64,000 nt of DNA from NCBI GenBank assembly GCA_043808325.1, contig JAZDEY010000048.1:1-64000 (forward strand), given 5' to 3'. Made by a program: the position numbers and the translations under genes. Shown piece after piece: positions 2,187 through 45,012 of the stretch (position 1 is the stretch's first letter; each line of letters starts with the position of its first letter). Source of the DNA: JAZDEY01 sp043808325 [NCBI: Candidatus Eiseniibacteriota bacterium] (GTDB lineage: Bacteria > Arandabacterota > Arandabacteria > Arandabacterales). The notes beneath the pieces were generated by a model. The model was not told where the DNA came from. It was given only the letters and a program-made list of their open reading frames with translations, and ran no database searches.

Positions 2187-3569
2187 TTACTTCACGACCA
2201 CCATCTTGGTGAGGACGCTGGCGCCGCCGACCGAGAGTTTGCAGAAATAGACGCCCGGAGCCACAGCGGCTCCATGCGCGTCCCTGCCATCCCACATAAC
2301 CGAAGTTTCGCCGGAGCCCACGCCCACGGGGCCCGCAGCCAAGGTGCGTACCACCTGGCCGCTCGTGTTGTAAACAGCAACATCAGCGCTACTCGCGCCG
2401 CCGGGCACGCGGAACGATATCGTGGTGGCCGTGCTAAAGGGGTTCGGGAAGTTCGGGGTCAAAGCAAGCCGGCCCTCCGGCAAGGTCGGCGTCGGGACGC
2501 CGGCCACGGGCGGGTCGAACCAATCCAGCACCCGCGCGACGAGCTGGTTCTGATTGTTAGGATTAGGATCGCCGGTGCTCACGCCTTCAAACGGGAACGC
2601 GAGGAACACCACCTTGTGGCCGCCCTCGTCACTCTTAAGACCCTTGGTCCCCGTGCCGCAGAAGAACATCTCGTCGGACTCGCCCGTGAGCACCATGCTA
2701 TCGCTGCTATCCGCGGGGAAAGGCGTGCTCCCGAGCGGGAGTGACATACCATCGGAGACTTCGTCTCCGGTGACTCCCACCATTGGGGTGCCGCCGGTAT
2801 TGCCGGTCCAGGATGCGATGTTAAGATAGTCGGTGGTGAAGGCCGAGGGACCCATCCGGCTTGAGAGAAATCCCATGCTCGCCAGGAAGAGATTGCCCCC
2901 GTAGTCTAGGTAGCCGGCCATATCGGTCTCATCGGCGCTCGTAAGATAGGTGGCGTTGCCGGCAGCTGTGGTCCAGAAAACACCCCAGTAGGAATCAAGC
3001 TGCAAGATTCCGGGCCTCCCCAAGGTCGTGGTATTCCAGACCCGTGCCTTGTAGCCCGCATTCTGAATGGCGTTCAAGAGATAAGTCTGGTAGGCCTGGC
3101 CGGCATCGTCGTCCACCAGCATGATCGATGGGATATTGGCGAAGCCCGCAAAGGTCTCGCTGTGGGTCACCGAGGTCTGGCTCTGCATCGTGCCCTTGAG
3201 GGCGACGAGCCCCATATCATTGGTCGCACCCGTGAAGATGTCCACGAGGATTGTGTCGATCTGGCCGGGAGCAAAATAGAAGTACTTAAGCTTCGTTCCC
3301 AAATAACAGCCACCCCGCAGGCAGTAGTCGGCCGTCCAACCCGCCGGCAGGGTTTTCACCAGCTCAAGTCCTATGCTGTCGCCCTGGGTCCCAGTGTTCT
3401 CGAGCACGGTGTAGAAAGCCGCCGTGGAGAAGACGGCGGTCTGAGCTGCATAGACCTGGGTTCTAAACGTGAAGTCATAACTCGCCAGGGATTCACCCAC
3501 CAGGAAAGCCACTAAAATTGCCGGGCCGATAAGCACGAAAACAAACCTTGCTCGACTCAAACGCTCCAT
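2187..3569 (-). CDS. Secreted protein with FlgD-like C-terminal sorting domain
   Basis: The start is placed at ATG 3569 (MERLSRARF), which has AGGGGTGA just upstream; the frame is open 22 codons further. A signal peptide ends near ESLAS. The middle part, including IMLVDDDAGQAYQTYLLNAI and a following region about a possibly glutamine-amidotransferase-like fold, is of a type found in large secreted proteins. The last ~85 residues are a FlgD-like Ig tail: NFPNPFSTATTI, WDGRDAHG, GVYFCKLS, ending KMVVVK, which is thought to direct secretion or surface attachment in FCB-type bacteria. The enzymatic role is unknown. Confidence 0.7.
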   Translation of the reverse strand: MERLSRARFVFVLIGPAILVAFLVGESLASYDFTFRTQVYAAQTAVFSTAAFYTVLENTGTQGDSIGLELVKTLPAGWTADYCLRGGCYLGTKLKYFYFAPGQIDTILVDIFTGATNDMGLVALKGTMQSQTSVTHSETFAGFANIPSIMLVDDDAGQAYQTYLLNAIQNAGYKARVWNTTTLGRPGILQLDSYWGVFWTTAAGNATYLTSADETDMAGYLDYGGNLFLASMGFLSSRMGPSAFTTDYLNIASWTGNTGGTPMVGVTGDEVSDGMSLPLGSTPFPADSSDSMVLTGESDEMFFCGTGTKGLKSDEGGHKVVFLAFPFEGVSTGDPNPNNQNQLVARVLDWFDPPVAGVPTPTLPEGRLALTPNFPNPFSTATTISFRVPGGASSADVAVYNTSGQVVRTLAAGPVGVGSGETSVMWDGRDAHGAAVAPGVYFCKLSVGGASVLTKMVVVK

Positions 3570-3669
3570 GAAGTCACCCCTATTGCGGTATAGTTGTCCG
3601 ACCTGTATTATACCATTCTTGGTCAGGATTTTCAAGTGCAGTTTGGGCGCCTGCGCGGCCGCCGAACTC

Positions 3670-4776
3670 TCAGTGGCGCCTGAGGCGCGCCGACTGGATC
3701 ACTTCCCGCGTCACCGTATCCTGGACGAACGCAACCACGTCCATGTTGGCCGCGTTCCAGGTCTCGTCAACCGCGAATGCCCGCTCGACTCCTACCGAAT
3801 CGCCAATCGCCGCAACTGTCAGGGAATCGTCCGCAAGCAGATCCCGCGTGACGAAATCGAAAATGTCGGCATACCAACCGTTGTAGCGGACATCATCCTC
3901 GATCACAGCGAACCGCAGCACCAGTGGGTCCGATGTGAGCCGGCCCGTGACCTTGACGCCAACCGCCACATTCCCGCCACTCGTTTCGAGCTCGCCCTCA
4001 GTCGTGAGTCTTATGGGAGAGCCGGCCTCGATCCGCCGCGTGATCTCGACTCGGTAGTCGGCCCGCGCCTGGGCGACCGTCGGAGCGCGCTCCACGGTTC
4101 TCAGGCCGTCGAAAATCGCAATCGGCCACTCGTCCCCGGGGATGCCGGGATTCTTGGTGTACCAGTCGATCCGGGCAACGGTCTCATCGCTGGCAAGTCC
4201 GTCCGACTCGGTCATATCGTGATAAGCGACAACCGCAAGCCTGCCGGCCCCAATCTCGGCAAGCATGCTGTCCAGGGCCGCTTCAGCCTTGTCGCAGTTC
4301 TGGCAGATGTTGGTGGTGAAGAGTTCGACCAGCACCATCCTCTCGACTAGAACACCCTTGGCGAGCGCCGTGAAATTGCACTCGGCCGGGGTGGGATCGG
4401 CCTCACCTTCATCGTCACGGGCACGGACCTGGAACCGATGCTCGCCGGGGGTCACCGCCTCGACAACCGTGAAATCGTCTGTGGTGCTGACCCATGCAGT
4501 GTCGTCATAGCTCCACTCGAAGCCCGCCACGACGCCATCGACATCGCTCGCCGACCAAGTGAACCTGACGTCGGCGCCTTCGTCGATCTCCCCCAGTTGT
4601 CCGCACTCGGTAATAAGCACGGTCTCGGGGGGAAGATTAGCCTCGGGCTGAGGCTCAAACCAGTCGCAGCCACCGAAAGCCATGATCGCTATGAATGCGA
4701 CCGCGGCGGCCACGGCGACCCAGGTCCCGATCGCACCGTCAGCAATATGATGATTCGTTTGCTTCATTTGCTTCAT
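3670..4776 (-). CDS. Omp28-like thioredoxin-fold lipoprotein (CxxC)
   Basis: The start at ATG 4776 (MKQMKQTNHH) follows GGAGAG by 9 nt. A membrane segment ends in the lipobox FGGC. An Ig/fibronectin-like domain follows, then an Omp28-type thioredoxin fold with MVLVELFTTNICQNC, whose CQNC is the redox pair. It lines up directly with the three selenoproteins downstream (MVLVEDFTNSG-U-SGC in the first), so it is the cysteine counterpart of their UxxC site. It lacks the FlgD-like tail and is probably held in the membrane by lipid. Likely a periplasmic or surface thiol oxidoreductase; the substrate is unknown. Confidence 0.75.
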   Translation of the reverse strand: MKQMKQTNHHIADGAIGTWVAVAAAVAFIAIMAFGGCDWFEPQPEANLPPETVLITECGQLGEIDEGADVRFTWSASDVDGVVAGFEWSYDDTAWVSTTDDFTVVEAVTPGEHRFQVRARDDEGEADPTPAECNFTALAKGVLVERMVLVELFTTNICQNCDKAEAALDSMLAEIGAGRLAVVAYHDMTESDGLASDETVARIDWYTKNPGIPGDEWPIAIFDGLRTVERAPTVAQARADYRVEITRRIEAGSPIRLTTEGELETSGGNVAVGVKVTGRLTSDPLVLRFAVIEDDVRYNGWYADIFDFVTRDLLADDSLTVAAIGDSVGVERAFAVDETWNAANMDVVAFVQDTVTREVIQSARLRRH

Positions 4777-4821
4777 TGAGCAAGTCTCTCCACACGTCCT
4801 CAAAGCAGTCTCAAAGCAATC

Positions 4822-6366
4822 TCAGAACGATTTGGTCAATCTCAATCTCAGGCCCGCGAACTCGGGCTCGGTGTAGCAGACCCCGCCGCTGCATTTCTTG
4901 CCGCCGCGCTCGGTCCCAAAACCCAGGGCCACATCGAATCCCTCACCCAGGGCTGCCCCCACTTCTCCATAGAGCCAGCGATCGCGTTTCAAGTTCTTCT
5001 GGGTGCTGGTCTCCGCCACACCGGAGAGTGTGACGACTGAGGTCGGGTACCACGTCGCAGTCCCGAGGAAGTTGGCAAAAGCATCACCCGTAGGCTCTTC
5101 GATCCGCTGGCCTCCAAGGCTAAACTCCAACCCCACTCCGGTCTCGCCGGTAAGATCGGCCTCGCCCATCACCGTCATATACTCCGTGAATTTGCCTGAG
5201 ACATATTCGCGCGACCAGGAAGCTCCAAGAGATCCCGTACCCATACTTCCGAGCGGGCGCTCCACGGAGCCGAACATCTCCCAGTGAGCGAGATCGCCGT
5301 TAGCTGTGCGCGCCTCGGAGGCGCTACCCGTGATCGGCATGTCTTCGAATACCGTGAGCGTCCCTTCGACCAAGTACCCGCGCTCATCATCCAGATTGAC
5401 CTGGTGAGTCGTGCGATTCATCAAAGTCCAGATATGCTCCCGCACACAGGTCGGAGGGTTCACCAGCGCATTCTCGAAGCGCCTGTATTCCTTGTATTCC
5501 CCGAGGAGTGTGAGCCACGCGGTGCTCAAGTTCCCGGAGACATAGCCGCCATGCCCAGGGATTTCCCCGCGGGCCAGCGTGGGATAATAATCGCCTTCCC
5601 GGTAAGCATAGTCCGCCGCAAGATGCACCGACTTGATCCACAGTTCGGCTTCGCCGCCGATAATCGTATCGTCGAATTTCCTGAGACTCTCAGGCAGCGC
5701 GACCGTTCGGTCCAGCCGCTCAGTTGCCCGCTTGAGCCCGCTTGCCGCCAGGGAGAAGAGCCCTTCCCGGGCCATGACCACCCGTGCGCCACCAGCCCCG
5801 TGCTCGTCTTGGCGGGTGTCCGATATGCGCTCGGTCGTCTTGCCGGAGAGCGCGCTCACCTTGAGAGGTCCCACCTGGTATTCTCCGAGGATGCCGTCGA
5901 GGGCGGTATCGCGCTCGAGGTCGATATCTTCGAAGCTCCTTAGGGTGAGACCGCGGTCGAACGTGGCGAAGAAGTGTCCCGCTCGCAAGGCGAGACTCCC
6001 CAGCGCAAGATTCCCAATCCTGGGGAGGCTATCGAGTGCAAGCTCGGCGTAGCGATGCTTGATCTTGGGCTGCGGGACTTCGATCCTGCGCGGATTGTAG
6101 GTCTTGTCACTCAGGTGATAGGCGCGGTAGGCTCCGCCCAGCGTGAAAGCGCCGAACTGGGCCTCCGCATCAAGCCTGGCGTCAAGCACCGTGGCCCAGA
6201 GATCGGTATTGAGAAGATCGGTGGTCCTCAAGGCCCCTCGGACTTCACCCTCGCGGGCAAGCCCGGGCGCAACACCAGCCAGGCAACTGCACCAAGCGAT
6301 CGCTGCGGTGAGAACTAATCGGAGACCAATTCGGGAGGACGTGCCGGTCGGGGCATCACTGAACAA
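4822..6366 (-). CDS. Putative outer-membrane beta-barrel protein (DUF6029-like)
   Basis: A 514-residue protein with an N-terminal signal peptide (hydrophobic segment, then PGLARE). The body alternates aromatic and polar residues as in a porin-like barrel, includes RAGHFFATFDRGLTLRSF, and ends in a phenylalanine (RLRLTKSF), the usual C-terminal signal for barrel insertion. The apparent start is TTG 6366, inside the last codons of the tlpA-like gene, so translation is probably coupled. DUF6029 membership is from recall of that pattern. Function is not known; pairing with a thioredoxin suggests a secreted redox or nutrient-uptake unit. Confidence 0.65.
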   Translation of the reverse strand: MFSDAPTGTSSRIGLRLVLTAAIAWCSCLAGVAPGLAREGEVRGALRTTDLLNTDLWATVLDARLDAEAQFGAFTLGGAYRAYHLSDKTYNPRRIEVPQPKIKHRYAELALDSLPRIGNLALGSLALRAGHFFATFDRGLTLRSFEDIDLERDTALDGILGEYQVGPLKVSALSGKTTERISDTRQDEHGAGGARVVMAREGLFSLAASGLKRATERLDRTVALPESLRKFDDTIIGGEAELWIKSVHLAADYAYREGDYYPTLARGEIPGHGGYVSGNLSTAWLTLLGEYKEYRRFENALVNPPTCVREHIWTLMNRTTHQVNLDDERGYLVEGTLTVFEDMPITGSASEARTANGDLAHWEMFGSVERPLGSMGTGSLGASWSREYVSGKFTEYMTVMGEADLTGETGVGLEFSLGGQRIEEPTGDAFANFLGTATWYPTSVVTLSGVAETSTQKNLKRDRWLYGEVGAALGEGFDVALGFGTERGGKKCSGGVCYTEPEFAGLRLRLTKSF

Positions 6367-6916
6367 CCGGGCCCTCCCCGGCAGCCTTCTTGGGCAGGAC
6401 CGACTGCACGGCTTCGTCGAGCTGCTCTTCGTTGGTCGGGCGGTAGCCTACGGCGGTGTAGATGATCTCTCCCTTGGGGCTGATCAGCACCGTCCGCGGG
6501 ATCGCGACGGCGTTATACTTCTGCGCTACCTTTCCCTCAATATCGAGCAGCACCTCGAAGGTGTATTTCTGAGACTTGATGAAGGGGCTGACGCGAGACC
6601 GCGACTTGGGACTGTCGACCGAGACCGCAATCACGGTCAAGCCCTGCGCTTTGTACTTTTCGTGGATCTGCTGGAGAGCCGGGAAACCTTTGATGCAGGG
6701 CTTGCACCAGGTCGCCCAGAAGTCAAGCACCACCGGGCCCCGGCTCAGGAGTTCTGAGAGCTTGATATCTTTGCCGTCAAGATTGGGGAGCGCAAAGTCC
6801 GGCGCCTTGCTTTCTGCGGCAATCGCCGCGCCTGCGGCCAGAACGCCCGCGAGCGCGATCAAGACCAGGGTGATTCCCGCAAAGCCCTTGAAGCCGATTC
6901 TGCGTCCTACCACCAT
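6356..6916 (-). CDS. TlpA/ResA-like membrane-anchored or periplasmic thioredoxin
   Basis: ATG 6916 is chosen because GAGGAG lies 10 nt upstream; the frame runs open further to 7009. The product has a signal peptide or anchor ending around AIAAES, then a TlpA/AhpC-like fold with the active site WCKPC (Cys71 and Cys74) and the cis-proline segment AIPRTV. Proteins of this family reduce periplasmic disulfides, for example during cytochrome c maturation. The stop overlaps the start of the barrel protein gene. Confidence 0.85.
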   Translation of the reverse strand: MVVGRRIGFKGFAGITLVLIALAGVLAAGAAIAAESKAPDFALPNLDGKDIKLSELLSRGPVVLDFWATWCKPCIKGFPALQQIHEKYKAQGLTVIAVSVDSPKSRSRVSPFIKSQKYTFEVLLDIEGKVAQKYNAVAIPRTVLISPKGEIIYTAVGYRPTNEEQLDEAVQSVLPKKAAGEGPVVQ

Positions 6917-7046
6917 TGTGATAACGCTCCTCAACATAGAAGGTAAGCTACACCCGCCTGCTCTGATAGTCAAGCCACAGGCCGCATCACGTACGCTCAC
7001 CACGAACAAGAGCCGGGAGCACGAGCCCCCGGCTCATATCAGCCGC

Positions 7047-8165
7047 TTATTTCAGCAAGACCATACGCCCGTTGCGCGAGCCATTCGGTGTCTGGAGCCG
7101 GTAGTAATAGATTCCGCTCCCGACCTGGTTGCCGGCGCGGTCACGCCCGTTCCAGGCGACCGCATGCGAGCCCGGCTCGACATAGCCATCCACGAGATGA
7201 GTCACTAGCCTCCCCGTCGGCGTATAGACCGAGAGGCGCACATCGCCTGCCGCACTGAGCTGGTAGGCAATCTGCGTCTCGGCGGCAAACGGGTTCGGCC
7301 TATTCTGACCGAGCCACAGGTGGGCCGGTGTGTCGCCGGTCGTGACCGACGCCACATTGACCACTTTCTTGCTGTTGGTCTGAAGAACCCTGGGGTCATT
7401 CACTGCGACCACGGTGGTCTCCGGCGGGTCGCCATGCACCCACTCGACCATCAAGGTGTCGGTCACCTCGACGTAGACCGTGGTGAACAGCGGGTTGACC
7501 CATACGGGATCCACGGGATAGGCCGAATCGAAATGGAGCGAATCCCCCTGCTGGAGACTGATCGGGTAGCCGCTCACGTCCGGCACAAAATCCCTGAAGG
7601 CATACCACCACTTGGCGACCGGGTAGGGATATCGGTGATATTCCTCGGTCACCGCGACAAAGGCGGCCACGCCGATGGTGCGCGGCGTGTAGGCTATGGA
7701 ATCCACGGCAACCACGTCAAAACTCACATAGACTGAATCCCCATCCTGGCTGAGCATCTGATCCAGGTTGATTCGGACGGGGCTCGGAACGGCATACAGA
7801 CTCTCCACGGTGGCGCTGAAGAAACCGTACCAATCGTCCACGGTCGATGGGTCCTCGATATAGTGACCGTCAAACCGGAAACTCGGCACATACCCTACAT
7901 CGTAGTAGGCAACGCGGTTCTGGACATCCAGGGGATTGAACTGATAGAAGTTGTCCGGACCATAGGGCCACCAGGTGTGATAAGCAATCGGAGCAACCTG
8001 CCCCGCATAGACCACAAAGAGCGAATCCATCGCATCTTTGATCTGTTTGCAGCCGCTTCAACCAGAGTTGGTAAAGTCCTCAACGAGCACCATGCGCTGA
8101 ACCGCAAGCGCCGGGAGCGCGCTGAGGAGGACGAGCGCTAGAGCCACTATAGCCTTCCGCCGCAT
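7047..8165 (-). CDS. Secreted Omp28-like selenoprotein 1 (UxxC) with FlgD-like tail
   Basis: Translation from ATG 8165 (AAGGAGG upstream) gives a signal peptide MRRKAIVALALVLLSALPALA, split here as MRRKAIVALA and LVLLSALPALA, then MVLVEDFTNSG, an in-frame TGA at 8060-8058 (codon 36), then SGCKQIKDAMDSLF and a continuous frame to the stop. The TGA sits exactly where the Cys relative at 3670-4776 has the first Cys of CQNC, giving UxxC. A stem-loop of SECIS type follows. The C-terminal ~90 residues are a FlgD-like tail (NRPNPFAAETQIAY, WNGRDRAG, SGIYYYRL, MVLLK). With Sec inserted the protein is 372 residues. Probably a secreted thiol-disulfide or peroxide-handling oxidoreductase; substrate unknown. 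If Sec were not read, only a 35-residue stub would be made. Confidence 0.85.
8015..8040 (-). promoter_or_regulatory. SECIS-like hairpin of selenoprotein 1
   Basis: It begins 17 nt after the TGA. The outer arms are CAAAGA/UCUUUG, a single U is bulged, the inner arms are GCGA/UCGC and the loop is UGGAU. The loop starts 28 nt after the UGA, in the range for bacterial SECIS elements, and has a G near its 5' side. Confidence 0.8.
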
Positions 8166-8237
8166 CGACTGCCTCCTTAGGCCTCAAGCCCCTTCGCTTA
8201 TGCCACCAATGTACTTATGGCTATCAGAACACTGCTT

Positions 8238-8266
8238 ATGATATCACGTTTCGACTGCGAATTCAA
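8238..8266 (-). promoter_or_regulatory. Sigma-70-type promoter of selenoprotein 1
   Basis: Read on the minus strand, TTGAAT (8266-8261) and TATCAT (8243-8238) are 17 bp apart. The same block, including AAACGTGATATCATAA, occurs upstream of selenoprotein 3, which argues for shared control. Confidence 0.65.
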
Positions 8267-8348
8267 CGCCAAACCGACCGCTGCCCCCTGTCCGAGCCAC
8301 GCCCCAAGATCCCTATCCCCTTGCCAAAACGTAGGTTATGGCCGTACG

Positions 8349-9443
8349 CTATCTCAGAAGCACCATCCGGCCGGTGCGCGTCGCCCCCTCGGTCTCGAGC
8401 CGGTAGTAGTAAATGCCGCTTCCGGCCAGCCGGCCTGAGCGGTCACGGCCGTCCCAGGTCGCCGAGTGCGAGCCCGGCTCCACATAGGTATCCACAAGAT
8501 GGGTCACGAGCCTCCCGGTCGGCGTATAGACCGACAGGCGCACGTTGCCTCCACGGCTAACCTGGTAGGCAATCCGCGTCTCGCCTCCGAAAGGGTTGGG
8601 AGCATTGCGGCCGAGCCACACCAGGCTCGAACCACCACTGCCGAACACCGACGACTGATCCACGATCTTGGCGCTGGCCGCCTGGAGTACCACGTGGGTG
8701 CTGTCCATCGGGCCTTGGCCGCCCGCCGTGCCCGCGGTCTCCACAAAGATGGTGGTGATGATCTGGTCCTGGTTATAGATGGGATCGACCGGGTAGCTCC
8801 AATCGAAGTGGAGCGAATCCCCCTGCTCGAGCGCAAGCGGGTAGCCGTCGCCGTCCGGCACCATGTCCCTGAAGGCATAGTACCACTTGCCGACGGGAAC
8901 CGCGTAGCGATGGAACTCTTCAGAGACCGCGAGATAAAGCACGGGTGGCCCATAGACTGATTCCTGCGGCAGCGGATCGACCGCAACCACATCGAAGCTC
9001 ACGTAGACCGAGTCCCAATCTGCACTGGGGGCTTGATCCATGTTGATTCTGATCGGACTTGGGATAAGGAGCAGGCTGTCTACGATCTGCCGGAAGAACA
9101 TCATAAACTCCGGATAGGCCTTTGGGGTGCCGAAGAGATCCTCGATATAGACCCCATCGTAGCGGAACGTGGGCACGACCACTACCTGGTAGAAATCTGC
9201 CCGGGCAGCGATCTCGGTTTGATTGAACAAGAAGAACGGATCGTTGGGCCAGTAGTGATATTCGATCGGAGCGACCTGCCCCGCGTAGCTACCAAAGATC
9301 GCATCCAGCGAATCTTTGATATCCTTGCAGTAAAGTCAGCCGCTGCCGACGAATTCCTCAATGAGCACCGTGCGCTGAACGGCCAGCGCGGGCGCCACGG
9401 TAAGGAAAATAAGCACCAGCGACGCAAGAGCTTTCAAGCGCAT
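8349..9443 (-). CDS. Secreted Omp28-like selenoprotein 2 (UxxC) with FlgD-like tail
   Basis: From ATG 9443 (GGGGAG upstream) the frame encodes a signal peptide starting MRLKALASLVLIFLTV, then TVLIEEFVGSG, an in-frame TGA at 9338-9336 (codon 36), LYCKDIKDSLDAIF and a long Omp28-like domain. The tail is NAPNPFGGETRIAY, WDGRDRSG, SGIYYYRL and MVLLR. It is a diverged paralogue of the genes on both sides, and all three keep TGA at the same redox position while CQNC occurs in the lipoprotein relative. Role as for selenoprotein 1. With no clear promoter in the 97-bp gap it is probably cotranscribed with selenoprotein 3. Confidence 0.85.
9293..9318 (-). promoter_or_regulatory. SECIS-like hairpin of selenoprotein 2
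   Basis: It begins 17 nt after the TGA, with outer arms CAAAGA/UCUUUG, a bulged U, inner arms UCGC/GCGA and loop UGGAU. Compared with selenoprotein 1 the inner arms are swapped, so pairing is kept by compensatory change while loop and spacing are identical. Confidence 0.8.
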
Positions 9444-9478
9444 ACGCTCCCCTTTGCGCTTCCAGCCTCAGTTGTAGT

Positions 9479-9507
9479 CGAGCCGGCCCTGTATCAGCCG
9501 GCTCGAA
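9479..9507 (-). promoter_or_regulatory. GC-rich hairpin between selenoprotein genes 3 and 2
   Basis: The arms GAGCCGGC and GCCGGCTC enclose a 9-nt loop. No T-run follows on the minus strand, so it is more likely an mRNA-stabilising or processing hairpin than a strong terminator. Confidence 0.45.
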
Positions 9508-9540
9508 TCTATCCAAGCTCTATCTAAGCTCTTCCTTGCC

Positions 9541-10659
9541 CTATTTCAGGACAACCATTCTGCCTGAGCGCGATCCCTGCTCGGTATCGAGCCGGTAGTA
9601 ATAGATACCGCTGCCCACGCTCTTGCCGAAGCGGTCCTGCCCGTTCCAGTTGGCCGAATAAGCACCCGGCTCACGATAGGTATCCACGAGCTGGCTCACC
9701 AGCCGACCTGTCGGCGTGTAGACTGCCAGGCGCACCGTCCCCGCGCGGTTGAGTTCATAGGCAATGGTCGTCGTGCCGCTGAACGGATTGGGAGTATTCT
9801 GCCCGAGCCGCATCAAGGCCGGAAGGCGGCCGTCGCTAACTGACGCCACGCTGACTACCTTGGCGGTCACGGTCTGGAGCACCTTGTTGCGCTGCTTGCC
9901 CACGTGGACGCTGGTATCCGGATCGTTCTGGACCCAGAGGGTGGTGATTATGTCGTCCAGGTTGTAGATCGCATTGATGGGATACACCCAGTCAAAGTGG
10001 AGCGAATCCCCCTTCTGAATCGTGATCACCTGGCCGTCTATGCTGGGGATCATATCCCGGAAGGCGTACTTGCCGTCTATGTTGGCGACATGACCATGGC
10101 TTGGCGGATATACGTGATACTCTTCCGTCACCGCCAGGTAGACATCGGGCGTGGTATCGTAGATGATCGTATCCACGGCCACGATATCGAAACTCACATA
10201 GACCGAATCCCAGTCCTCGCTCGGGTACTGACTCATATTGATCCTGATGGGACTCGCAATCGCCTCAAGGCTATCCACGGCCGCGGCGAGCCACGCGAAG
10301 AACTCGGGGTAATTCGGACCTGTGCCGAAGAGATCGTTGATCTTCTTGCCGTCATAGCGGAAAGCCGGCGTGTAGTCCACGCCGTAGTAGTCGCTTACCC
10401 GCGTCTGGACGTCAAGAGTATTGAACAGATAGAAAGGATCTTGATTGTGAGGCCACCACGTATGCACCTCAACCGGAGCAACCTGCCCCGGGCGCGCATC
10501 AAAGAACGCATCAAGCGTTCCTTTGATTTGCTCGCAGTAGCCTCAACCACAGTTGGTGAAATACTCAATCAGCACGTTGCTACGCTGGACAGCAAGCACC
10601 GGTAGCGCGCTAATTAAGATAAGACCCAGAGCCAAAGCCACCATGGCGCATCTGCGCAT
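9541..10659 (-). CDS. Secreted Omp28-like selenoprotein 3 (UxxC) with FlgD-like tail
   Basis: From ATG 10659 (AGGAGGGA upstream) the frame encodes a signal peptide, then NVLIEYFTNCG, an in-frame TGA at 10545-10543 (codon 39), GYCEQIKGTLDAFF and the Omp28-like body. The tail has NTPNPFSGTTTIAY, WNGQDRFG, SGIYYYRL and MVVLK. It has an extra Cys two residues before Sec (C-G-U-G-Y-C), which the other two copies lack. It is first in transcription order. Function is inferred as a secreted selenol/thiol oxidoreductase; no substrate evidence is visible. Confidence 0.85.
10498..10527 (-). promoter_or_regulatory. SECIS-like hairpin of selenoprotein 3
   Basis: It begins 15 nt after the TGA: arms AUCAAA/UUUGAU, one bulged G, arms GAACGC/GCGUUC and loop UUGAU. 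The loop again starts 28 nt after UGA although the pairs differ from copies 1 and 2. Confidence 0.8.
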
Positions 10660-10767
10660 CGGTCCCTCCTTCTGGCCTCTCGGCCGCTATTCTTACACAG
10701 TTCGATTTTGCGCTGGTCGTATGCGCCTAACCTGTACTGAATCCTACACTTCGCCCTATGTTTGATT

Positions 10768-10796
10768 ATGATATCACGTTTGCCTTTGGAATTCAA
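10768..10796 (-). promoter_or_regulatory. Sigma-70-type promoter of selenoproteins 3 and 2
   Basis: On the minus strand TTGAAT (10796-10791) and TATCAT (10773-10768) are 17 bp apart. The block matches the promoter upstream of selenoprotein 1 (8238-8266), including AAACGTGA between the boxes. Confidence 0.65.
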
Positions 10797-10887: not shown

Positions 10888-11523
10888 CTACCACTCGGCG
10901 GGCTTGTGAATCCTCGTCCCATCGGGAAGGATGAAGGGATTAGGGAATTGGTGCTTGATGTATTGCACCCGCCCAATAGAGAAGGACATAGGTGCTATCT
11001 GTACAAGCTCCTTGTTCTTCCGGGCGTAAGGGAATGCGAAGAGGATATCATTCTGAGGAAACAATCGAGAACACACACGAACCAAGGGGCTGAAGTCCGT
11101 ATCGCCTGATACGATCACTAGTGCGTCGGCACGATCGTCAATGAACAATTCCATGGCACGCACCGCAATCGCCACATCCGTTTCCTTCTCCTCATGCTTG
11201 ATGATCCAGCTTTGGCAGCTGTCGCAGAACACCTCTTTCACCTTGAACCGGGCGAGCTCTACCTCGATCCCGGTAGTCCTGAGACAGCGCATGTATGTCT
11301 CGTGGCGTAAGACCTTGCCGGGATCTCTCGGACTAAGATAATGCGGGGGTGCTGAGAAGTAACGAACCCCAGCAAGGCATGCATCTTTGCCAAACATATA
11401 CAAATAGGATGTGCACAGAGATCCGACATTGAGCCACTTAGCACGCTGGCCGGTGTTGCGCTTGAGTTCTAGGGTCGAGTGGTAGAGATTGAATCCATCA
11501 ATTAGGAAGGCAACACGTCTCAT
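10888..11523 (-). CDS. NYN-domain ribonuclease-like protein
   Basis: The start at ATG 11523 gives MRRVAFLIDGFNLYHS, the N-terminal Asp-bearing strand of NYN/PIN-like nucleases. Further acidic residues lie in KETDVAIAVRAMELFIDD and VSGDTDFSPLVRV, completing the metal site. Two Cys pairs (CDSC) may bind zinc. NYN proteins of this type (LabA/DUF88-like) cut RNA or act in RNA turnover. The start codon directly follows a terminator-like hairpin and T-run, so expression may depend on read-through. Confidence 0.8.
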   Translation of the reverse strand: MRRVAFLIDGFNLYHSTLELKRNTGQRAKWLNVGSLCTSYLYMFGKDACLAGVRYFSAPPHYLSPRDPGKVLRHETYMRCLRTTGIEVELARFKVKEVFCDSCQSWIIKHEEKETDVAIAVRAMELFIDDRADALVIVSGDTDFSPLVRVCSRLFPQNDILFAFPYARKNKELVQIAPMSFSIGRVQYIKHQFPNPFILPDGTRIHKPAEW

Positions 11524-11556
11524 AAAAAAACCCCCGGATCGTAACCCAGGGGGGGC
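11524..11556 (-). terminator. Terminator-like hairpin with T7 run just 5' of the NYN start codon
   Basis: On the minus strand a run of C and a run of G pair around TGGGTTACGATC, and seven T residues follow and touch the ATG. A second hairpin (GCGAGC/GCTCGC, about 11562-11577) precedes it. With a promoter upstream this looks like an attenuator or the end of a small leader RNA of about 65 nt. Confidence 0.6.
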
Positions 11557-11594
11557 CGGCGAGCCGTAGCTCGCTGGGGATGATTTCTGCATAT

Positions 11595-11697: not shown

Positions 11698-12009
11698 TCA
11701 GCAGCAGGGCACCTTGGGCGAGTCCGGCCCACCGCCGCAGTCGCAGGTGGGTTCGGTGCCTCTAAGGGCACCCGTGATCACAGCGGCAGCGCATCCAACG
11801 CCTGCTGTGACTTCGATCGCGCCGGTGGCACAATTGCGTGCGCAGGCCCCGCACTCCATACACAGGTCCCTGTCGGTGACAACTGCCTTGCCGTCCCTCA
11901 CCTCGAAGACCCCGTGAGGGCAGACCATCTCGCAGAGGCCGCACCCGATGCACCTGGCGGGATCGAATCTCAACGAGGCAACATCCTTTAGATACTTCAG
12001 GCGTTCCAT
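11698..12009 (-). CDS. hgcB: HgcB, ferredoxin partner of mercury methylation
   Basis: The 103-residue protein has two [4Fe-4S] motifs, CIGCGLCEMVCP (20-31) and CMECGACARNC (50-60), a conserved Cys in AGVGCAA (Cys73), and the C-terminal vicinal pair PCC (102-103) that is characteristic of HgcB. It starts MERLKYLKDV, like known HgcB. It supplies electrons to the corrinoid of HgcA during methylation of Hg(II). It lies 11 bp after hgcA, as usual. Confidence 0.93.
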   Translation of the reverse strand: MERLKYLKDVASLRFDPARCIGCGLCEMVCPHGVFEVRDGKAVVTDRDLCMECGACARNCATGAIEVTAGVGCAAAVITGALRGTEPTCDCGGGPDSPKVPCC

Positions 12010-12020
12010 CTGGATACCCC

Positions 12021-13076
12021 CTACATCCCTCTGAATGAAACTGTTTGAACGAATCTAGACGCGAGCCAGATGCCCACCCCCACAAGACCTCCCGCGATCT
12101 GCAACGGGACTGCGATTCGCATCTCCCGCTTCACACCCGACAACGACGTGTAGGTCGAGGCACCTGTGAAGTTCATGGTCAAGAACGAGGCTATGGTCGG
12201 TATAAGCGCGGCCCATGCGACGACCTCAAGAAGATTGTGCCCCGCAAGGCCGGTCAGCAAGGAAACGACGAATATACCGAGGCCCGCCGCCAAACCCTTC
12301 AGCGAGAAGGCCCGCCCCGGCAGCCAGGGAAGGAGCACGGGGCCCACAAAGACACCGCCCAAATAGGCAAGCAGCAAGTTCCCCGCTGACCGAAAGCCGA
12401 CATCCAGAACCCGACTGCTTGCATATCCCCCCCTGCCAATGCCGGCCAACAAGAGGAATACGGCAGCAGCGATGACCAAGTACTTCAAGCTTACGACAAA
12501 TTCGACGCGGGTTTGCCGAAGCCGATCAATCGTGGCAAACCTTACGCGCCGCATATCGAGGGTCGCCACCATACCTGCATCGAGGAAAGGCCGCACGTCA
12601 CGGGCGCGCACGGGGCCGTAGGTCACTGAGAAGCCGGAGCCCTTCCTGACTTCGTGCGCCGCCACTCCGGGGGCTCCGAGCTGCGGAAGAATAAGCCTAC
12701 GATGGGTGATGACCTCGCCGAGGCGTGTGCGCTCGATGCGATCCAGTATTTCCTGAGTTCCAAAAGTGCCTTTTCCGGCAGCGCACCATACATTGATGCC
12801 CTTGGTATCGAGAACCATGATCCACGCGTCGAGCCCGGCGAGCTCACGCCTGAGACTATCGAAGCTCAACTTGTAGTTAGCCGTGACAAGTACGGGCGAG
12901 GTCCGGTCGGGATTGCCGACCGCGTATAGGCCAGGGGCAACCGTGTACTTCATGCGGCCGATGGACCAGTTTGCCTTGAGGCTTCCCCTTCTGTCGGCCC
13001 GGGTGAGGTCGGTCGCGACCTTTGGCACTCTCCCGACTGCGGTGTCTGTCCAACCTATGATGTATGCTGTGTCCAA
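12021..13076 (-). CDS. hgcA: HgcA, corrinoid protein of mercury methylation
   Basis: The N-terminal soluble domain contains the diagnostic cap-helix motif NVWCAAGKG, with Cys98 as the expected lower ligand to the cobalamin. About five transmembrane segments follow from residue ~195 (FVVSLKYLVIAAAVFLLLAG, LLLAYLGGVFVG, LAAGLGIFVVSLL and others). HgcA passes a methyl group from corrinoid to Hg(II), giving methylmercury. The likely start is TTG 13076 with GAGGG upstream. The 351-residue length fits the family. Confidence 0.93.
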   Translation of the reverse strand: MDTAYIIGWTDTAVGRVPKVATDLTRADRRGSLKANWSIGRMKYTVAPGLYAVGNPDRTSPVLVTANYKLSFDSLRRELAGLDAWIMVLDTKGINVWCAAGKGTFGTQEILDRIERTRLGEVITHRRLILPQLGAPGVAAHEVRKGSGFSVTYGPVRARDVRPFLDAGMVATLDMRRVRFATIDRLRQTRVEFVVSLKYLVIAAAVFLLLAGIGRGGYASSRVLDVGFRSAGNLLLAYLGGVFVGPVLLPWLPGRAFSLKGLAAGLGIFVVSLLTGLAGHNLLEVVAWAALIPTIASFLTMNFTGASTYTSLSGVKREMRIAVPLQIAGGLVGVGIWLASRFVQTVSFRGM

Positions 13077-13094: not shown

Positions 13095-13765
13095 CTATGC
13101 ACGCACCAGGAAATAGAAGCCCACTCCCAGCATCAGCACGCCTGAAATGATCTTTAGGGCGGGCATTACCTTGGTCGCCCGCAGCGCCCACTTTCCAAGA
13201 CCGACGCCCAAGAGCACTCCTACCAGGGGAAGGCTGAAGCCCACACCGAACGCTGCCATCAGCAGCGCCCCCTTGATCGCCTGCCCCTGGAGGGCCACTA
13301 CCCCCAATATGCCAAGGAGGGCGGGGCTGCAACAGGATACGGCACAGGTGGCCGATGAGCCGCCCAGCGCGGAGCCCAAGACCAAAGCTCCCAGCACTCC
13401 TCTGGCACCCGTTGTTCCGGCCTTGCCTAGAGGACGGAAAGCCGGCAGCCTAAAGGGAGACAGCCCCAGGCTCATCAAGCCAAAGAGGATCAGCACGAAG
13501 CCGAGCACCAGCCTGCTATAACGGTTGAAGGTCTCACCGACAAGTTGGCCCGCGTATCCCATGGCGGCGCCGATCGCGGCCAACGCAAGAATAGAGCCCG
13601 CCGCGTGGTCTCGCCGGTCCCGACATACCCGGTGATCGCTCCGACCACAGGCAGGCTGCAGCAGGTCGAGGCAACTGCACTGAGCATCCCCAGGAGCACC
13701 AGGGCAGCCACCACTGTGATGCCTATTCCGGGGGCCTCAAGCGCTCGGTTTATCCATTCCTGCAT
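13095..13765 (-). pseudogene. CcdA/DsbD-like membrane thiol transporter, interrupted by a one-base frameshift
   Basis: One frame starts at ATG 13765 (MQEWINRALEAPGIGIT) and contains VASTCCSLPVVGAITGYVG. The next frame continues with AAIGAAMGYAGQLVGE and a second cysteine segment SATCAVSCCSPALLGILG. The frames join if one base is added at the GGG run near 13595. Together they give a six-helix CcdA-type protein with paired cysteines, which moves reducing power across the membrane. It may be a real disruption or an assembly indel. It sits directly before hgcA, so its reductant could serve the Cys-rich neighbour or HgcAB. Confidence 0.65.
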
Positions 13766-13803
13766 AAGGCTGTCGCCTCCATCAATCGGATGGCACTGTG
13801 GTG

Positions 13804-14517
13804 CTACTTCCCGGGGCAGCACCCTGACGCGCCGGCAGTGGTACCGCACGCGCCCGGCGCACATCCCACCGCACACGTCACGCGCACATAGTCTCTCAAG
13901 AGCGCGTCCTCGGTGATCTCTCCCTTGACCACGCTCGGGGCGCAGGTCTTCCCAAGCAGGACAACTGCGGGAAATCCATCGACGGCGAGAGCGCTCACAA
14001 GTTTCTTAAACCGAGGGTCATTCGGCTTCAGGATCAGCGCACCGGCCTGAACTCCCTTCCCACTCAGGGTCCCCGAGACCTGCTGGATCACCCGTGTGGC
14101 GGCCCCGGTTTCCTGGGCATCCGCTCCCGCCAGGAGCACGAAAGCGAAATCCTTCTCCGGCGCGAGGTCGGCAAGGCCGGGTGAAGTCGCGACGGCCACC
14201 GCGCGATCGGTCTCGATCGGCACCTCTGCAGCCTTCCGGTTCGCCCTAATCAGCGACCAAGCCGCAACCGCGATTGCTGCCGCTATGACCACGATAAAGA
14301 TGATTGACCTGAACCTGAATACTCCGCGCCACCCACACGGACTGCCCCCCGAGTCTGCCTGAGGTCCACAGCAGTCCGGACCGCACGAGCTGGGGCCGCT
14401 CGAGCTAGGTCCGCACGAGCAGGCCCCCTCAGGGCCGGTGCGAGGGGCCGGCCGACCACTTGATGCATCTGAGGAGCGATTTCCCTCATCACGATCTTGC
14501 TTATCTCTGGAACTCAT
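13804..14517 (-). CDS. Cys-rich membrane-anchored thioredoxin-like protein
   Basis: The ATG at 14517 (MSSRDKQDRDEG) has GGAGG upstream. A Cys/Gly/Ser/Pro-rich segment (ACSCGPSSSG, CGPDCCGPQ) precedes one transmembrane helix (IIFIVVIAAAIAVAAWSLI). A periplasmic thioredoxin-like domain follows, with FPAVVLLGKTC, and the C-terminus is again Cys-rich (CAVGCAPGACG, GCCPGK). It may bind soft metals such as Hg or Cu, or exchange thiols with the CcdA-like protein. No named family was recognised. Confidence 0.6.
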   Translation of the reverse strand: MSSRDKQDRDEGNRSSDASSGRPAPRTGPEGACSCGPSSSGPSSCGPDCCGPQADSGGSPCGWRGVFRFRSIIFIVVIAAAIAVAAWSLIRANRKAAEVPIETDRAVAVATSPGLADLAPEKDFAFVLLAGADAQETGAATRVIQQVSGTLSGKGVQAGALILKPNDPRFKKLVSALAVDGFPAVVLLGKTCAPSVVKGEITEDALLRDYVRVTCAVGCAPGACGTTAGASGCCPGK

Positions 14518-26130: not shown

Positions 26131-27342
26131 TTACGCGAGGACCTTCGCGATCCTCTCTACTGCCCAGTCGATCTCCTCGTGCGAGATCACAAGCGGCGGA
26201 GCAAACCTTATCACCTGGTGATGGGTCTCCTTGGCAAGAACACCCAGCGACATCAACCGCTCGCAGAAGGGCCGCGCGGTACCGGAGCTCTCCTTCACTT
26301 CGACTCCGATCAAGAGCCCTTTGCCTCGGATCTCTTTCACGTGTGGGGACCTGATTGCGGCAAGTTTATCCATGAAGTAGCAGCCGGCTTCGAGAGCGCG
26401 CTCCGGCAGGGCCTCATCCAGGATCACCCGGAGGGCCGCCGAGCCGATCGCACAGGCCAACGGGTTCCCTCCAAAGGTGCTGCCGTGATCTCCGGGCTTA
26501 AAGACGCCCATCACTTCCTTCGACGCGAGCATCCCTGAGACTGGATAGACTCCGCCGCCAAGCGCCTTGCCCACGATCAGGACGTCCGGCTTGATGCCGT
26601 CATATTCATAACAGAACATCTTGCCCGTCCTGCCGAGCCCGGTCTGAATCTCATCGAGCATGAGGAGGATATTGTTGGCCCAAACCAGTTTCGCCGCTTC
26701 CTTGAGGTAGCCTTCGCTCGGTACTAGTATGCCGGCCTCGCCCTGGATGGGCTCCACCAGGAAGCCGACGGTGTTGGGGGTTATGGCCTTTCGCAGGGCA
26801 TCGAGATTGTTGTAGGGAATCATCTTGAATCCCGGCCCGAAGGGACCGAAGCCTTCGCGGTACTGCGCCTCGGATGAGAAGCCCACAACCGTGGTGGTCC
26901 TGCCGTGGAAGTTGTTCTCGCAGACGATTATCTCGGCCTGGTCCCTGGGCACACCCTTCACGAGGTAGCCCCACTTGCGAGCTGCCTTGATCGCGGTCTC
27001 GACAGCCTCAGCGCCGGTATTCATAAGGAGGATGCTCTCCTGGTCGGCTATCGTACACGCCAACTCGCAGAAAGGTCCGAACTGATCGTTATGGAAGGCC
27101 CTCGAGGTGAGCGTGAGACTGTCCATCTGGCGCCGCGCAGCCTCGAGAATCCTCGGGTGGCGGTGGCCCTGGTTCAAGGCCGAATAGGAACTGAGCATGT
27201 CCATGTATTTGCGGCCTTCGACGTCCCATACCCAGACACCTTCACCGCGAGACAGCACCACCGGCAAAGGGTGATAGTTGTGAGCGGCATAATTGTCGGC
27301 GAGCTTTATAAGATCAGCCGATGATAGCTGGTTGGTTTTCAC
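26131..27342 (-). CDS. Ornithine--oxo-acid-type aminotransferase (class III PLP)
   Basis: GTG 27342 with GGAGGGAGG upstream is preferred over TTG 27363. The class III pattern is complete: MNTGAEAVETAIKAARKWGY, the FHGRTTTVVGFSS region, DEIQTGLGRTGK, and the PLP lysine in VGKALGGGVYPVS. The closest family is ornithine aminotransferase (rocD), which transfers the delta-amino group to 2-oxoglutarate. The substrate assignment is tentative. Confidence 0.85.
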   Translation of the reverse strand: MKTNQLSSADLIKLADNYAAHNYHPLPVVLSRGEGVWVWDVEGRKYMDMLSSYSALNQGHRHPRILEAARRQMDSLTLTSRAFHNDQFGPFCELACTIADQESILLMNTGAEAVETAIKAARKWGYLVKGVPRDQAEIIVCENNFHGRTTTVVGFSSEAQYREGFGPFGPGFKMIPYNNLDALRKAITPNTVGFLVEPIQGEAGILVPSEGYLKEAAKLVWANNILLMLDEIQTGLGRTGKMFCYEYDGIKPDVLIVGKALGGGVYPVSGMLASKEVMGVFKPGDHGSTFGGNPLACAIGSAALRVILDEALPERALEAGCYFMDKLAAIRSPHVKEIRGKGLLIGVEVKESSGTARPFCERLMSLGVLAKETHHQVIRFAPPLVISHEEIDWAVERIAKVLA

Positions 27343-27509
27343 GGTTGTCCTCCCTCCAAGCAAGGCCCTTCCCCGGAACGGTGAAATTCCAGAGCGGTCG
27401 TCACGCTGTCTCGATAGCTTAAGCGGTTACAGGATACTACTATTGAGGATAGCAAAAACGAGACTCGAAGGCAACGCTTTCGGCGGCGGTCTCACGCCGG
27501 CGGGCGCGG

Positions 27510-44229: not shown

Positions 44230-45012
44230 TCACTCATACTTGGCACCAACTACAGCTCCCCACATCGGACTGTTACCTTCGACCTTCGCGACCTCGGCGA
44301 GGCCCATACGCTTGAGATCGGCCATCTGCCGCACGAGAATCCTCGGCGCCACACCCATAGCAGCGGCGAGCTCTCGGACCGAATGCGGCATCGTCCCAAG
44401 TCTTGTGAGAATCTCCCGCAACCTGTATTCATCCATGGCTACCTCGTCATAGAGCCTTCCGACCTCGTGGGCCGTGAAGCGCTCACCGTAGAGATTCCCC
44501 TTCTCTTTGAATTCGACGATCTTGCCCAACACCCATCTCAGTTTTCTTCCGCCAAGCGCCTGCTTCGCCGATTCGAGCTTGATCGCCAGGTCCGCAGGAC
44601 CGATGCCCTCGGCCTTGCCCAGAGCGCCTATCCGCGAGATATCGGCCTGAAATGCCGTCACGTGTTCCGCAAACTTGTTGCCCTCGGCGCTTGACATCCA
44701 GCGCAACACAAGCCGCTCCGGACTTATTCCCGCGAGCGCGAGAATCTTCCTGGTGAGGTCGATCTTGGCTTCGGCGTGAAGATTGCCGGTCGAGTAATGG
44801 CATTCGCCTCGTTTGCAGGCCCCCACAAATACGCCGTCCGCACCCGCGACGAACGCTTCCACGATCATCACGAGATCGACTCTGCCCGAGCACATCACCC
44901 GTATCACACGCACGTCGGGCGGATATTGAAGCCTCGCTACCCCGGCGAGGTCAGCTGCGCTGTATGCTCACCAGTTACAGCAGAAGGCTATTATGTTGGG
45001 TCGGTGGTCCAT
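44230..45012 (-). CDS. mvhD: MvhD-family iron-sulfur selenoprotein
   Basis: From ATG 45012 the frame gives MDHRPNIIAFCCNW, an in-frame TGA at 44970-44968 (codon 15), AYSAADLAGVARLQYPPDVR and onward. MvhD has CNWCSYAGADLAG here, so the TGA takes the second Cys of CxxC, as in known Sec forms (VhuD). The later Cys residues MCSGRVD, VGACKRGECHY hold the [2Fe-2S] site. It overlaps the HdrA stop by 22 bp. It passes electrons to HdrA. The C-terminal half adds a helix-turn-helix-like segment (LREILTRLGTMPHSVRELAA), which may be a DNA-binding or protein-binding extra. A normal gene call would start at an internal Met and lose the site. Confidence 0.88.
44932..44950 (-). promoter_or_regulatory. SECIS-like hairpin of the MvhD selenoprotein
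   Basis: It begins 17 nt after the TGA, with arms CCUCGC/GCGAGG and loop CGGGGUA. The loop starts 24 nt after UGA and holds G and GU as bacterial SECIS loops do. Confidence 0.7.

What the first reader, a model, noticed from the sequence alone, without database searches (positions are those of the whole stretch)
7047..10659. Tandem family of three secreted Omp28-like selenoproteins with a UxxC redox site and FlgD-like secretion tail
Three adjacent paralogues each run from a good ribosome site and signal peptide, across an in-frame TGA at codon 36, 36 or 39, into a continuous Omp28/thioredoxin-like protein. The TGA always sits at the first Cys of the redox pair (U-SGC, U-LYC, U-GYC), while the neighbouring lipoprotein at 3670-4776 has CQNC there. 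The combination of exported selenoprotein, UxxC thioredoxin fold and FlgD/type IX-like tail is, to my knowledge, not described. Without Sec reading all three would be annotated with missing N-termini.
Basis: partly seen in the sequence, partly recalled or inferred. Interest (0 to 1): 0.95.

Follow-up and report, generated by a model that had tools for sequence, protein, structure and literature searches.

The report
Three tandem secreted Omp28-like selenoprotein genes
An uncultured bacterium carries three neighbouring genes for exported proteins that very probably use selenium, as selenocysteine, in their reactive centre; they are divergent relatives of a known but uncharacterised selenoprotein family and sit beside a conserved set of redox and cell-surface genes.

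Summary
On the minus strand, 7047-10659, three tandem genes each consist of a signal-peptide piece, an in-frame TGA, and a 328-336 aa piece in the same frame whose third codon is Cys (TGA-x-x-TGC). They look maintained: dN/dS after the TGA is 0.29-0.42.
Support for selenocysteine: five short-family homologues have TGA (2) or Cys (3) at exactly this codon. A hairpin 16 nt after the TGA pairs in 49 of 55 cells in the five TGA copies, 17 of 33 in the Cys copies. Eight related genomes carry tRNA-Sec (7), SelA (7), SelB (6) and SelD (8). In 67 stop-bearing homologues from two other groups, 66 have TGA-x-x-Cys. The window's own genome is not held.
Known part: this is the Omp28-related selenoprotein kind (NCBIfam NF045500, 'GOS_C' of 2008). 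New part: these copies score far below that model, carry T9SS-type tails, occur in tandem, and lie in a conserved cluster with a TlpA thioredoxin, a DUF6029 protein (conserved CSGGxC) and a CxxC Omp28-like lipoprotein. Best reading: a secreted Sec-based thiol-disulfide system; function, location and partners are inferred.

The parts
10546..10659 (-). gene 3, piece before the TGA: signal peptide plus start of the mature domain
10543..10545 (-). gene 3, in-frame TGA, followed by GGC TAC TGC
9541..10542 (-). gene 3, piece after the TGA (333 aa, ends TAG)
9339..9443 (-). gene 2, piece before the TGA: signal peptide plus start of the mature domain
9336..9338 (-). gene 2, in-frame TGA, followed by CTT TAC TGC
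8349..9335 (-). gene 2, piece after the TGA (328 aa, ends TAG)
8061..8165 (-). gene 1, piece before the TGA: signal peptide plus start of the mature domain
8058..8060 (-). gene 1, in-frame TGA, followed by AGC GGC TGC
7047..8057 (-). gene 1, piece after the TGA (336 aa, ends TAA)
10499..10526 (-). gene 3 SECIS-like hairpin (11 of 11 pairs)
9292..9319 (-). gene 2 SECIS-like hairpin (11 of 11 pairs)
8014..8041 (-). gene 1 SECIS-like hairpin (9 of 11 pairs in the shared register)
9550..9795 (-). gene 3 T9SS type A sorting / FlgD_ig-like tail
   Evidence: TIGR04183 30.5 bits
8361..8600 (-). gene 2 T9SS type A sorting / FlgD_ig-like tail
   Evidence: TIGR04183 27.9 bits
7059..7298 (-). gene 1 T9SS type A sorting / FlgD_ig-like tail
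   Evidence: TIGR04183 25.5 bits
10768..10796 (-). promoter-like site upstream of gene 3 (TTGAAT-17-TATCAT); overlaps the exact element AACGTGATATCATAA at 10766-10780
8238..8266 (-). promoter-like site upstream of gene 1, same hexamers and spacing; same exact element at 8236-8250
7010..7035 (-). terminator-like hairpin after gene 1 (11 pairs)
6356..7009 (-). TlpA/ResA-like thioredoxin (WCKPC); start codon uncertain
   Evidence: Pfam AhpC-TSA 3.1e-30, over cut-off; NCBIfam ResA 4.5e-32, 111.3 bits, under its cut-off of 170
4822..6366 (-). DUF6029 protein (beta-barrel per PMC9603273) with C-terminal CSGGVC
   Evidence: Pfam PF19494 1.1e-18, paper passages
3670..4803 (-). intact Cys paralogue: Omp28-like lipoprotein with CQNC in place of U-x-x-C
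2187..3635 (-). FlgD/T9SS-tailed protein with CLRGGC, end of the conserved cluster

Best explanation
The three genes are selenoprotein genes: the in-frame TGA is decoded as selenocysteine with the help of the hairpin just downstream (inferred; selenium itself was not observed). Each protein is exported by a Sec signal peptide (read from the sequence) and carries a C-terminal T9SS-type sorting tail, so it probably ends up at or outside the outer membrane (inferred). The mature N-terminus starts with a thioredoxin-like U-x-x-C; no further Cys follows in the long pieces, and gene 3 has one more Cys two residues before. The rest is a remote Omp28 relative. Most likely it is a cell-surface thiol-disulfide oxidoreductase. 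Reducing power or disulfide exchange would come from the TlpA/ResA-like thioredoxin (WCKPC) or the CxxC Omp28-like lipoprotein encoded next door; a plausible substrate is the conserved CSGG[VI]C of the neighbouring DUF6029 protein (inference). The tandem copies would give parallel enzymes with different substrates, or simply dosage. My odds are about 0.92 for selenocysteine and 0.7 for the whole statement; the draft's 0.8 was lowered because on rechecking the Cys pair of the FlgD-tailed protein proved less conserved than I had written.
For: Sequence and frame. Purifying selection on the pieces after the TGA: dN/dS 0.29-0.42. TGA aligns without gaps to Cys in relatives: short family, window 3 TGA plus 2 TGA and 3 Cys among five relatives; long paralogue family 4 TGA and 2 Cys of six. 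The Cys paralogue in the same window has CQNC at this site; its clade aligns with two Cys relatives at hhalign E 3.9e-12 with the CxxC sites in register. Hairpin: 49 of 55 pair cells in five TGA copies against 17 of 33 in three Cys copies; 4 of 11 pairs with changes on both sides; slid controls 34.5-52.7% against 89.1%. Machinery in the 8 genomes held for the nearest phylum: tRNA-Sec over cut-off 7, 7 of 8 scanned loci read by ARAGORN as tRNA-Sec with anticodon tca; SelA 7; SelB over cut-off 6; SelD over cut-off 8. Wider: of 148 matches in 147 genomes of the phylum of a WOR-3-named MAG, 64 contain a stop, all with TGA and one with an added TAG, by my reading; with 3 more, 66 of 67 fetched stretches have TGA-x-x-Cys. 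T9SS: SprA over cut-off in 8 of 8; tails over cut-off in 3 of 3. Cluster: window, G002, G013, G014 and, in looser form, G027, G004, G111. DUF6029 CSGG[VI]C in 6 of 6 complete ends.
Against: The window's own genome is not held, so its Sec machinery is inferred from relatives and from two further Sec-type sites in the window. Gene 1's hairpin is weak by folding energy: z -0.65 at 50 nt, 57 of 200 shuffles as stable, 8 of 200 at 70 nt; 52 of 1000 synonymous nulls as stable, with 353 for G015a and 176 for G014a. 28 of 66 TGA sites of the wider set are not in the top tenth for local stability. The Cys copy G001a still forms 7 of 11 pairs. Not all stops in the wider family are TGA: the NF045500 search lists one match with TAA (G086) in a capped list, and G100 has an added TAG. 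G016 of the long family has Cys at the site but no second Cys two codons on. A thioredoxin fold for the short family was not shown: single-sequence models had pLDDT 33 and 41, and the profile of two intact Cys relatives found no solved thioredoxin; its one match was a copper-sensitivity suppressor protein at E 1.7. Surface location, partners and substrates rest on neighbourhood only. The C-x4-C of the FlgD-tailed protein is in the window, G002 and G014 but not in G111, nor in the FlgD-tailed frames looked at in G004 and G027.
Confidence: 0.7

Rival explanations
1. The TGAs are true stops: degenerating genes, or short signal-peptide ORFs followed by separately started proteins.
For: In the standard table each gene is two pieces; the mechanical ORF list gives 7047-8030, 8349-9230 and 9541-10467 as separate frames.
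Against: The same site is hit in three paralogues and in many homologues: 66 of 67 fetched stop-bearing stretches have TGA-x-x-Cys; a TAA appears once. dN/dS after the TGA is 0.29-0.42. The downstream pieces would lack a signal peptide yet keep a secretion tail. Cys homologues are single open frames across the site.
Confidence: 0.03
2. TGA is decoded as another amino acid here (reassigned code such as TGA=Trp, or a Cys-inserting suppressor tRNA).
For: Cys is the residue in the homologues, so Cys insertion would be functionally silent.
Against: TGA ends other genes in the window, for example the HdrA-like and FlpD-like genes. Relatives carry SelA, SelB, SelD and tRNA-Sec. The hairpin has fewer pairs when the codon is Cys.
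Confidence: 0.05
3. Selenoprotein yes, but the function is not thiol exchange on neighbours: for example peroxide, metal or metalloid handling at the cell surface, or a part of polysaccharide export with the DUF6029 barrel.
For: PMC9603273 (passages read) ascribes a potential polysaccharide-secretion role to DUF6029. UxxC sites also occur in peroxiredoxin-like and arsenate-reductase families (table in PMC2398784).
Against: The repeated pairing with a TlpA/ResA-like reductase and an Omp28-like lipoprotein with CxxC points to thiol redox; no polysaccharide gene is among the cluster genes that I scanned.
Confidence: 0.25

Closest known systems
Omp28-related selenoprotein, NCBIfam NF045500 (hypothetical protein GOS_C, Zhang and Gladyshev 2008, PMC2398784)
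   Same: Sec in UxxC, Trx-like fold and Sec/Cys forms reported for GOS_C, with a SECIS-like element (passages).
   Different: Window pieces score 14.9, 13.7 and 18.5 bits against a cut-off of 200. No genome in either group is over the cut-off (0 of 8; 0 of 147). The T9SS tail, the tandem copies and the TlpA-DUF6029-lipoprotein cluster were not mentioned in the passages that I read.
Omp28 family (Pfam PF11551, NCBIfam NF033782)
   Same: The Cys lipoprotein 3670-4803 in the same cluster matches weakly (PF11551 30.3 bits, cut-off 34.9; NF033782 42.3, cut-off 150), and its clade aligns with two Cys relatives of the three genes.
   Different: No PF11551 match for the three window pieces at E<=1; TGA instead of a Cys codon.
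TlpA/ResA thioredoxins
   Same: Exported thiol-disulfide exchange through a two-residue-spaced active site (recalled); a TlpA is encoded next door.
   Different: Different domain, UxxC rather than WCKPC, and a C-terminal sorting tail.
DUF1223 / Atu2684 (PDB 2axo)
   Same: The profile of the intact lipoprotein clade matches it at E 9.7e-7 over the CxxC domain.
   Different: No match for the profile of two short-family Cys relatives; one of them alone gives E 0.18.

Membership tests
Bacterial selenoprotein | In-frame TGA aligned with Cys in homologues | tested here: met
   UxxC context in 66 of 67 further stretches
Bacterial selenoprotein | SECIS-like hairpin close downstream of the TGA | tested here: met
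   weak by energy alone for gene 1
Bacterial selenoprotein | Host carries selA, selB, selC, selD | tested here: inconclusive
   own genome not held; nearest phylum: tRNA-Sec 7 of 8, SelA 7 of 8, SelB 6 of 8, SelD 8 of 8 over cut-off
Bacterial selenoprotein | Selenium in the native protein | not testable with these tools
   needs mass spectrometry or labelling
NF045500 Omp28-related selenoprotein | Score over curated cut-off (200 bits) | tested here: not met
   14.9, 13.7, 18.5 bits for the pieces after the TGA; 0 of 8 and 0 of 147 genomes. The pieces lack the residues before the TGA, but intact Cys relatives also score only 23.3 and 19.6, and G001a, cut by its contig end, does not match
NF045500 Omp28-related selenoprotein | UxxC motif | tested here: met
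   (as TGA-x-x-TGC)
Pfam Omp28 PF11551 | Score over gathering cut-off (34.9) | tested here: not met
   no match for the three pieces at E<=1; intact Cys relatives G002a 13.0 and G013a 12.7 bits, none for G001a
T9SS type A sorting domain TIGR04183 | Score over cut-off (23) | tested here: met
   25.5, 27.9, 30.5 bits
T9SS cargo | Host has the SprA translocon | tested here: inconclusive
   8 of 8 genomes of the nearest phylum over cut-off, some by summed pieces; own genome not held
Thioredoxin fold | Predicted or solved fold | tested here: inconclusive
   models useless; lipoprotein clade profile to 2axo E 9.7e-7 and weakly to two thioredoxins, E 0.19 and 0.72; short family no thioredoxin hit

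The most novel reading that the evidence does not exclude
A selenium-based redox system on the outside of the outer membrane: T9SS-exported UxxC proteins, radiated into tandem copies in this lineage and abundant as a broader Omp28-like family in a WOR-3-named phylum, exchange disulfides with a TlpA, an Omp28-like lipoprotein and the CSGGxC site of a DUF6029 barrel, so that selenocysteine works at the cell surface.
Probability: 0.3. Interest if true: 0.75.

Novelty: new variant of a known kind. Interest (0 to 1): 0.55.

Why it matters
A standard ORF list splits these genes at the TGA, and NCBI's model for Omp28-related selenoproteins does not reach its cut-off on them or on any of 155 genomes searched. 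So a large set of exported selenoproteins in uncultured lineages is probably annotated as truncated hypotheticals: 63 TGA-x-x-Cys homologues among 148 matches in 147 genomes of one phylum. If the tails and the conserved cluster mean what they seem to, selenocysteine is used at the bacterial cell surface, with named candidate partners that can be examined.

Tried and rejected
The first genome-contig scan with the gene 2 piece and a viral-contig scan with the gene 3 piece found no relative; a conserved neighbour (26131-27363, named an ornithine-aminotransferase-like gene by eye) was then used to find related genomes. Energy-only folding was a poor test for gene 1 and the two TGA relatives; a fixed-register pair count with slid and positional controls was used as well. 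Structure prediction from single sequences gave nothing usable, so no fold search was run. DUF6029 was sought in seven genomes reached through other loci and found in one, G111, which also appears in the phylum list. TGA at 44232 was considered and dropped: a gene end followed by the next gene in the same frame. L204 is not a Sec site: its TGA is at codon 222. Paper searches: selenoprotein+Omp28, 0 papers; selenoprotein-family survey terms, 25 listed; Omp28+selenocysteine, 2; WOR-3+selenocysteine, 1; DUF6029, 1; selenoprotein+type IX secretion, 1; Omp28+thioredoxin, 9; selenoprotein with candidate-phyla/SECIS/MAG terms, 8. Those I judged off the point from title and abstract start only. Passages were read of PMC13188914, PMC12013277, PMC2398784 and PMC9603273; no paper was read whole. 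Haft and Tolstoy 2025 (PMC12013261) is not held, so its content is unknown to me.
Full report
What is there. Three tandem minus-strand genes occupy 10659-7047. Each starts with a hydrophobic signal peptide ending ALA or VLA before VQR (read by eye), runs 35-38 codons to an in-frame TGA in the context F-[TV]-[NG]-[SC]-G-(TGA)-x-x-C, and continues in the same frame for 328-336 codons to a TAA or TAG. The Cys three codons after the TGA is the only Cys of each downstream piece; gene 3 also has a Cys two codons before the TGA. The copies share 53-57% amino-acid identity after the TGA and 51-74% before it; dN/dS of the downstream pieces is 0.29-0.42 and dS 0.98-1.21. These look like maintained genes, not decaying ones, and not recent copies.

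Regulatory anatomy. Genes 3 and 1 each have the same promoter-like site (TTGAAT, 17 nt, TATCAT) overlapping an exact 15-nt element, AACGTGATATCATAA, which occurs without mismatch only at these two places in the window; with up to two mismatches 3 matches were found and 0.01 expected. A terminator-like hairpin follows gene 1 (7035-7010). These are consensus matches only: 3 promoter-like sites against 1.5 in shuffles, 8 terminator-like against 2.6. They suggest two transcription units, genes 3+2 and gene 1.

Why selenocysteine. (a) Homologues: the gene 2 piece found relatives in 8 of 8 genomes held for the nearest phylum. I looked at 12 non-window sites: five of the same short family (2 TGA, 3 Cys), six of a longer paralogous family (4 TGA, 2 Cys, one of which, G016, lacks the second Cys) and one further Cys protein (G017). 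In the short family the TGA and the Cys codon align without gaps. Two long-family genes (G014, G015) sit on end branches of 0.05 changes per column and differ TGA/Cys at this site; the Cys one still holds the two complementary stretches of the hairpin. (b) Structure: an 11-pair hairpin with one bulge and a 5-nt loop, pairing nt 17-44 after the TGA, forms 9, 11, 11, 10 and 8 pairs in the five TGA copies and 6, 4 and 7 in the three Cys copies. On the five TGA copies 89.1% of cells pair, against 34.5-52.7% when slid, and 4 of 11 pairs carry changes on both sides; the measure 'further pair types' is not unusual (202 of 500 shuffles). The register was chosen from these same sequences, which favours it. 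Folding energy is clear for genes 2 and 3 (z -3.32 and -2.62 at 50 nt) and not for gene 1 (z -0.65 at 50 nt; 8 of 200 shuffles at 70 nt) (one search likewise). (c) Machinery in the 8 related genomes: tRNA-Sec over cut-off 7, with 7 of 8 scanned loci read as tRNA-Sec, anticodon tca; SelA 7; SelB over cut-off 6; SelD over cut-off 8, itself with an in-frame TGA in six matches. (d) Scale: an intact Cys relative used as query matched 83 of 147 genomes of the phylum of a WOR-3-named MAG, 148 matches by my sum of the table; 64 contain a stop, always TGA, once with an added TAG. I fetched all 64 and the three stop-bearing of five matches in G004: 66 of 67 have a TGA followed by two codons and then a Cys codon; the 67th is an end-of-match TGA. 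The 48 nt after those 66 TGAs rank, at the median, in the most stable 8% of windows further down the same stretch; 38 of 66 are in the top tenth.

What family. Closest by name is NCBIfam NF045500, 'Omp28-related selenoprotein', which PMC13188914 (passages read) lists under the name GOS_C, the name used in PMC2398784 (passages read): 74 Sec and 312 Cys sequences in ocean data, UxxC, Trx-like fold, SECIS-like element. The window pieces score 14.9, 13.7 and 18.5 bits against its cut-off of 200, intact Cys relatives 23.3 and 19.6, long-family proteins 27.7 and 29.1. No genome among 8 and 147 passes, although 8 and 90 have sub-threshold matches. So this is a relative, not a member by that model. 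The tie to Omp28 runs through the CxxC lipoprotein in the same cluster: PF11551 gives 30.3 bits in the window, 34.0 in G014 and 13.0 in G013 against a cut-off of 34.9, and its clade aligns with two intact Cys relatives at hhalign 97.6%, E 3.9e-12, over 227 columns with the two CxxC sites in register. The lipoprotein profile matches the solved Atu2684 (2axo, E 9.7e-7) and, below significance, two thioredoxins at the CxxC; that 2axo has a thioredoxin-like fold is recalled, not from a call.

Tree. In a quick tree of 92 rows built on pieces after the site (75 U, 17 C), the three window copies group with the five short-family relatives (100*); the five others form a clade (97*), and the order among the three is unresolved. 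U/C needs 7 changes, at least 4 forced by starred branches, against 15.9 in shuffles. Row selection was not random: all 66 TGA sites are in, but only seven of the 84 matches without a stop, so the U:C ratio there means nothing. One row (L204) is mislabelled C and long-branched; it was left in.

Neighbourhood. The order short-family gene(s) - TlpA/ResA thioredoxin - DUF6029 - Omp28-like CxxC lipoprotein is conserved in the window and in G002, G013 and G014 with 45-68% identity of these neighbours; the FlgD-tailed protein follows in G002 and G014 (43 and 47%), and the G013 contig ends first. In the two other short-family loci (G015, G001) the contig ends before any neighbour on that side. Looser versions with TlpA and DUF6029 occur beside Omp28-like genes in G027, G004 and G111; in G093 a TlpA lies beside an Omp28-like gene, with two TGA-bearing ones further up and no DUF6029 match in the stretch fetched. 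These were picked loci, not a sample. DUF6029 carries CSGG[VI]C near its C-terminus in 6 of 6 proteins with a complete end; G004 was cut by my fetch. The FlgD-tailed protein carries C-x4-C in the window, G002 and G014 but not in G111, and none was seen in the G004 and G027 frames. T9SS SprA is over cut-off in 8 of 8 related genomes. From this I infer a surface thiol-disulfide system; partners and direction of electron flow are not shown. PMC9603273 (passages read) ascribes a potential polysaccharide-secretion role to DUF6029, a rival context.

Limits. No whole genome is held for the window; placement rests on one aminotransferase-like gene 80% identical to two unnamed MAGs, and how the phyla named here relate to each other was not tested. 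Reading across the TGA was barred in this job, so no whole-protein search or fold was made. Novelty: the kind is known; the subfamily, its T9SS tails, its tandem copies and its cluster were not found by the paper searches named in Tried and rejected, but a relevant 2025 paper is not held.

Noticed in passing
window 47809-47811 (-): In-frame TGA in an HdrA-like gene between pieces ending TNDCSI and starting ILAPKM; HdrA as a known selenoprotein type is recalled.
   Followed up: partly
window 44968-44970 (-): In-frame TGA in a FlpD/MvhD-like gene between pieces ending FCCNW and starting AYSAADLAG; FrhD (pfam02662) with CxxU is in the table of PMC2398784.
   Followed up: partly
window 13095-13876 (-): A DsbD_TM-like gene appears split over two frames: a frame shift or an assembly error. 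Described only.
   Followed up: partly
window 8236-8250 and 10766-10780 (-): Exact 15-nt element AACGTGATATCATAA overlapping promoter-like sites before genes 1 and 3.
   Followed up: partly
L088, L092, L093, L094, L096: A second, longer Omp28-like paralogue family; its four TGA copies have a 7-8-pair hairpin starting about 11 nt after the TGA; G014 (TGA) and G015 (Cys) are closely related.
   Followed up: partly
L173-L174, L178/L194, L159/L172: Neighbouring pairs of TGA-bearing Omp28-like genes also occur in genomes of the WOR-3-named phylum, e.g. G084 and G094.
   Followed up: partly
L072 / G111: A MAG titled Candidatus Latescibacterota lies in a genome that the genome search lists in the phylum of the WOR-3-named G003.
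   Followed up: no
window 10888-11592, 11698-12009, 12021-13076 (-): Upstream neighbours: NYN-domain protein, small 4Fe-4S ferredoxin-like protein, CdhD-like protein.
   Followed up: no
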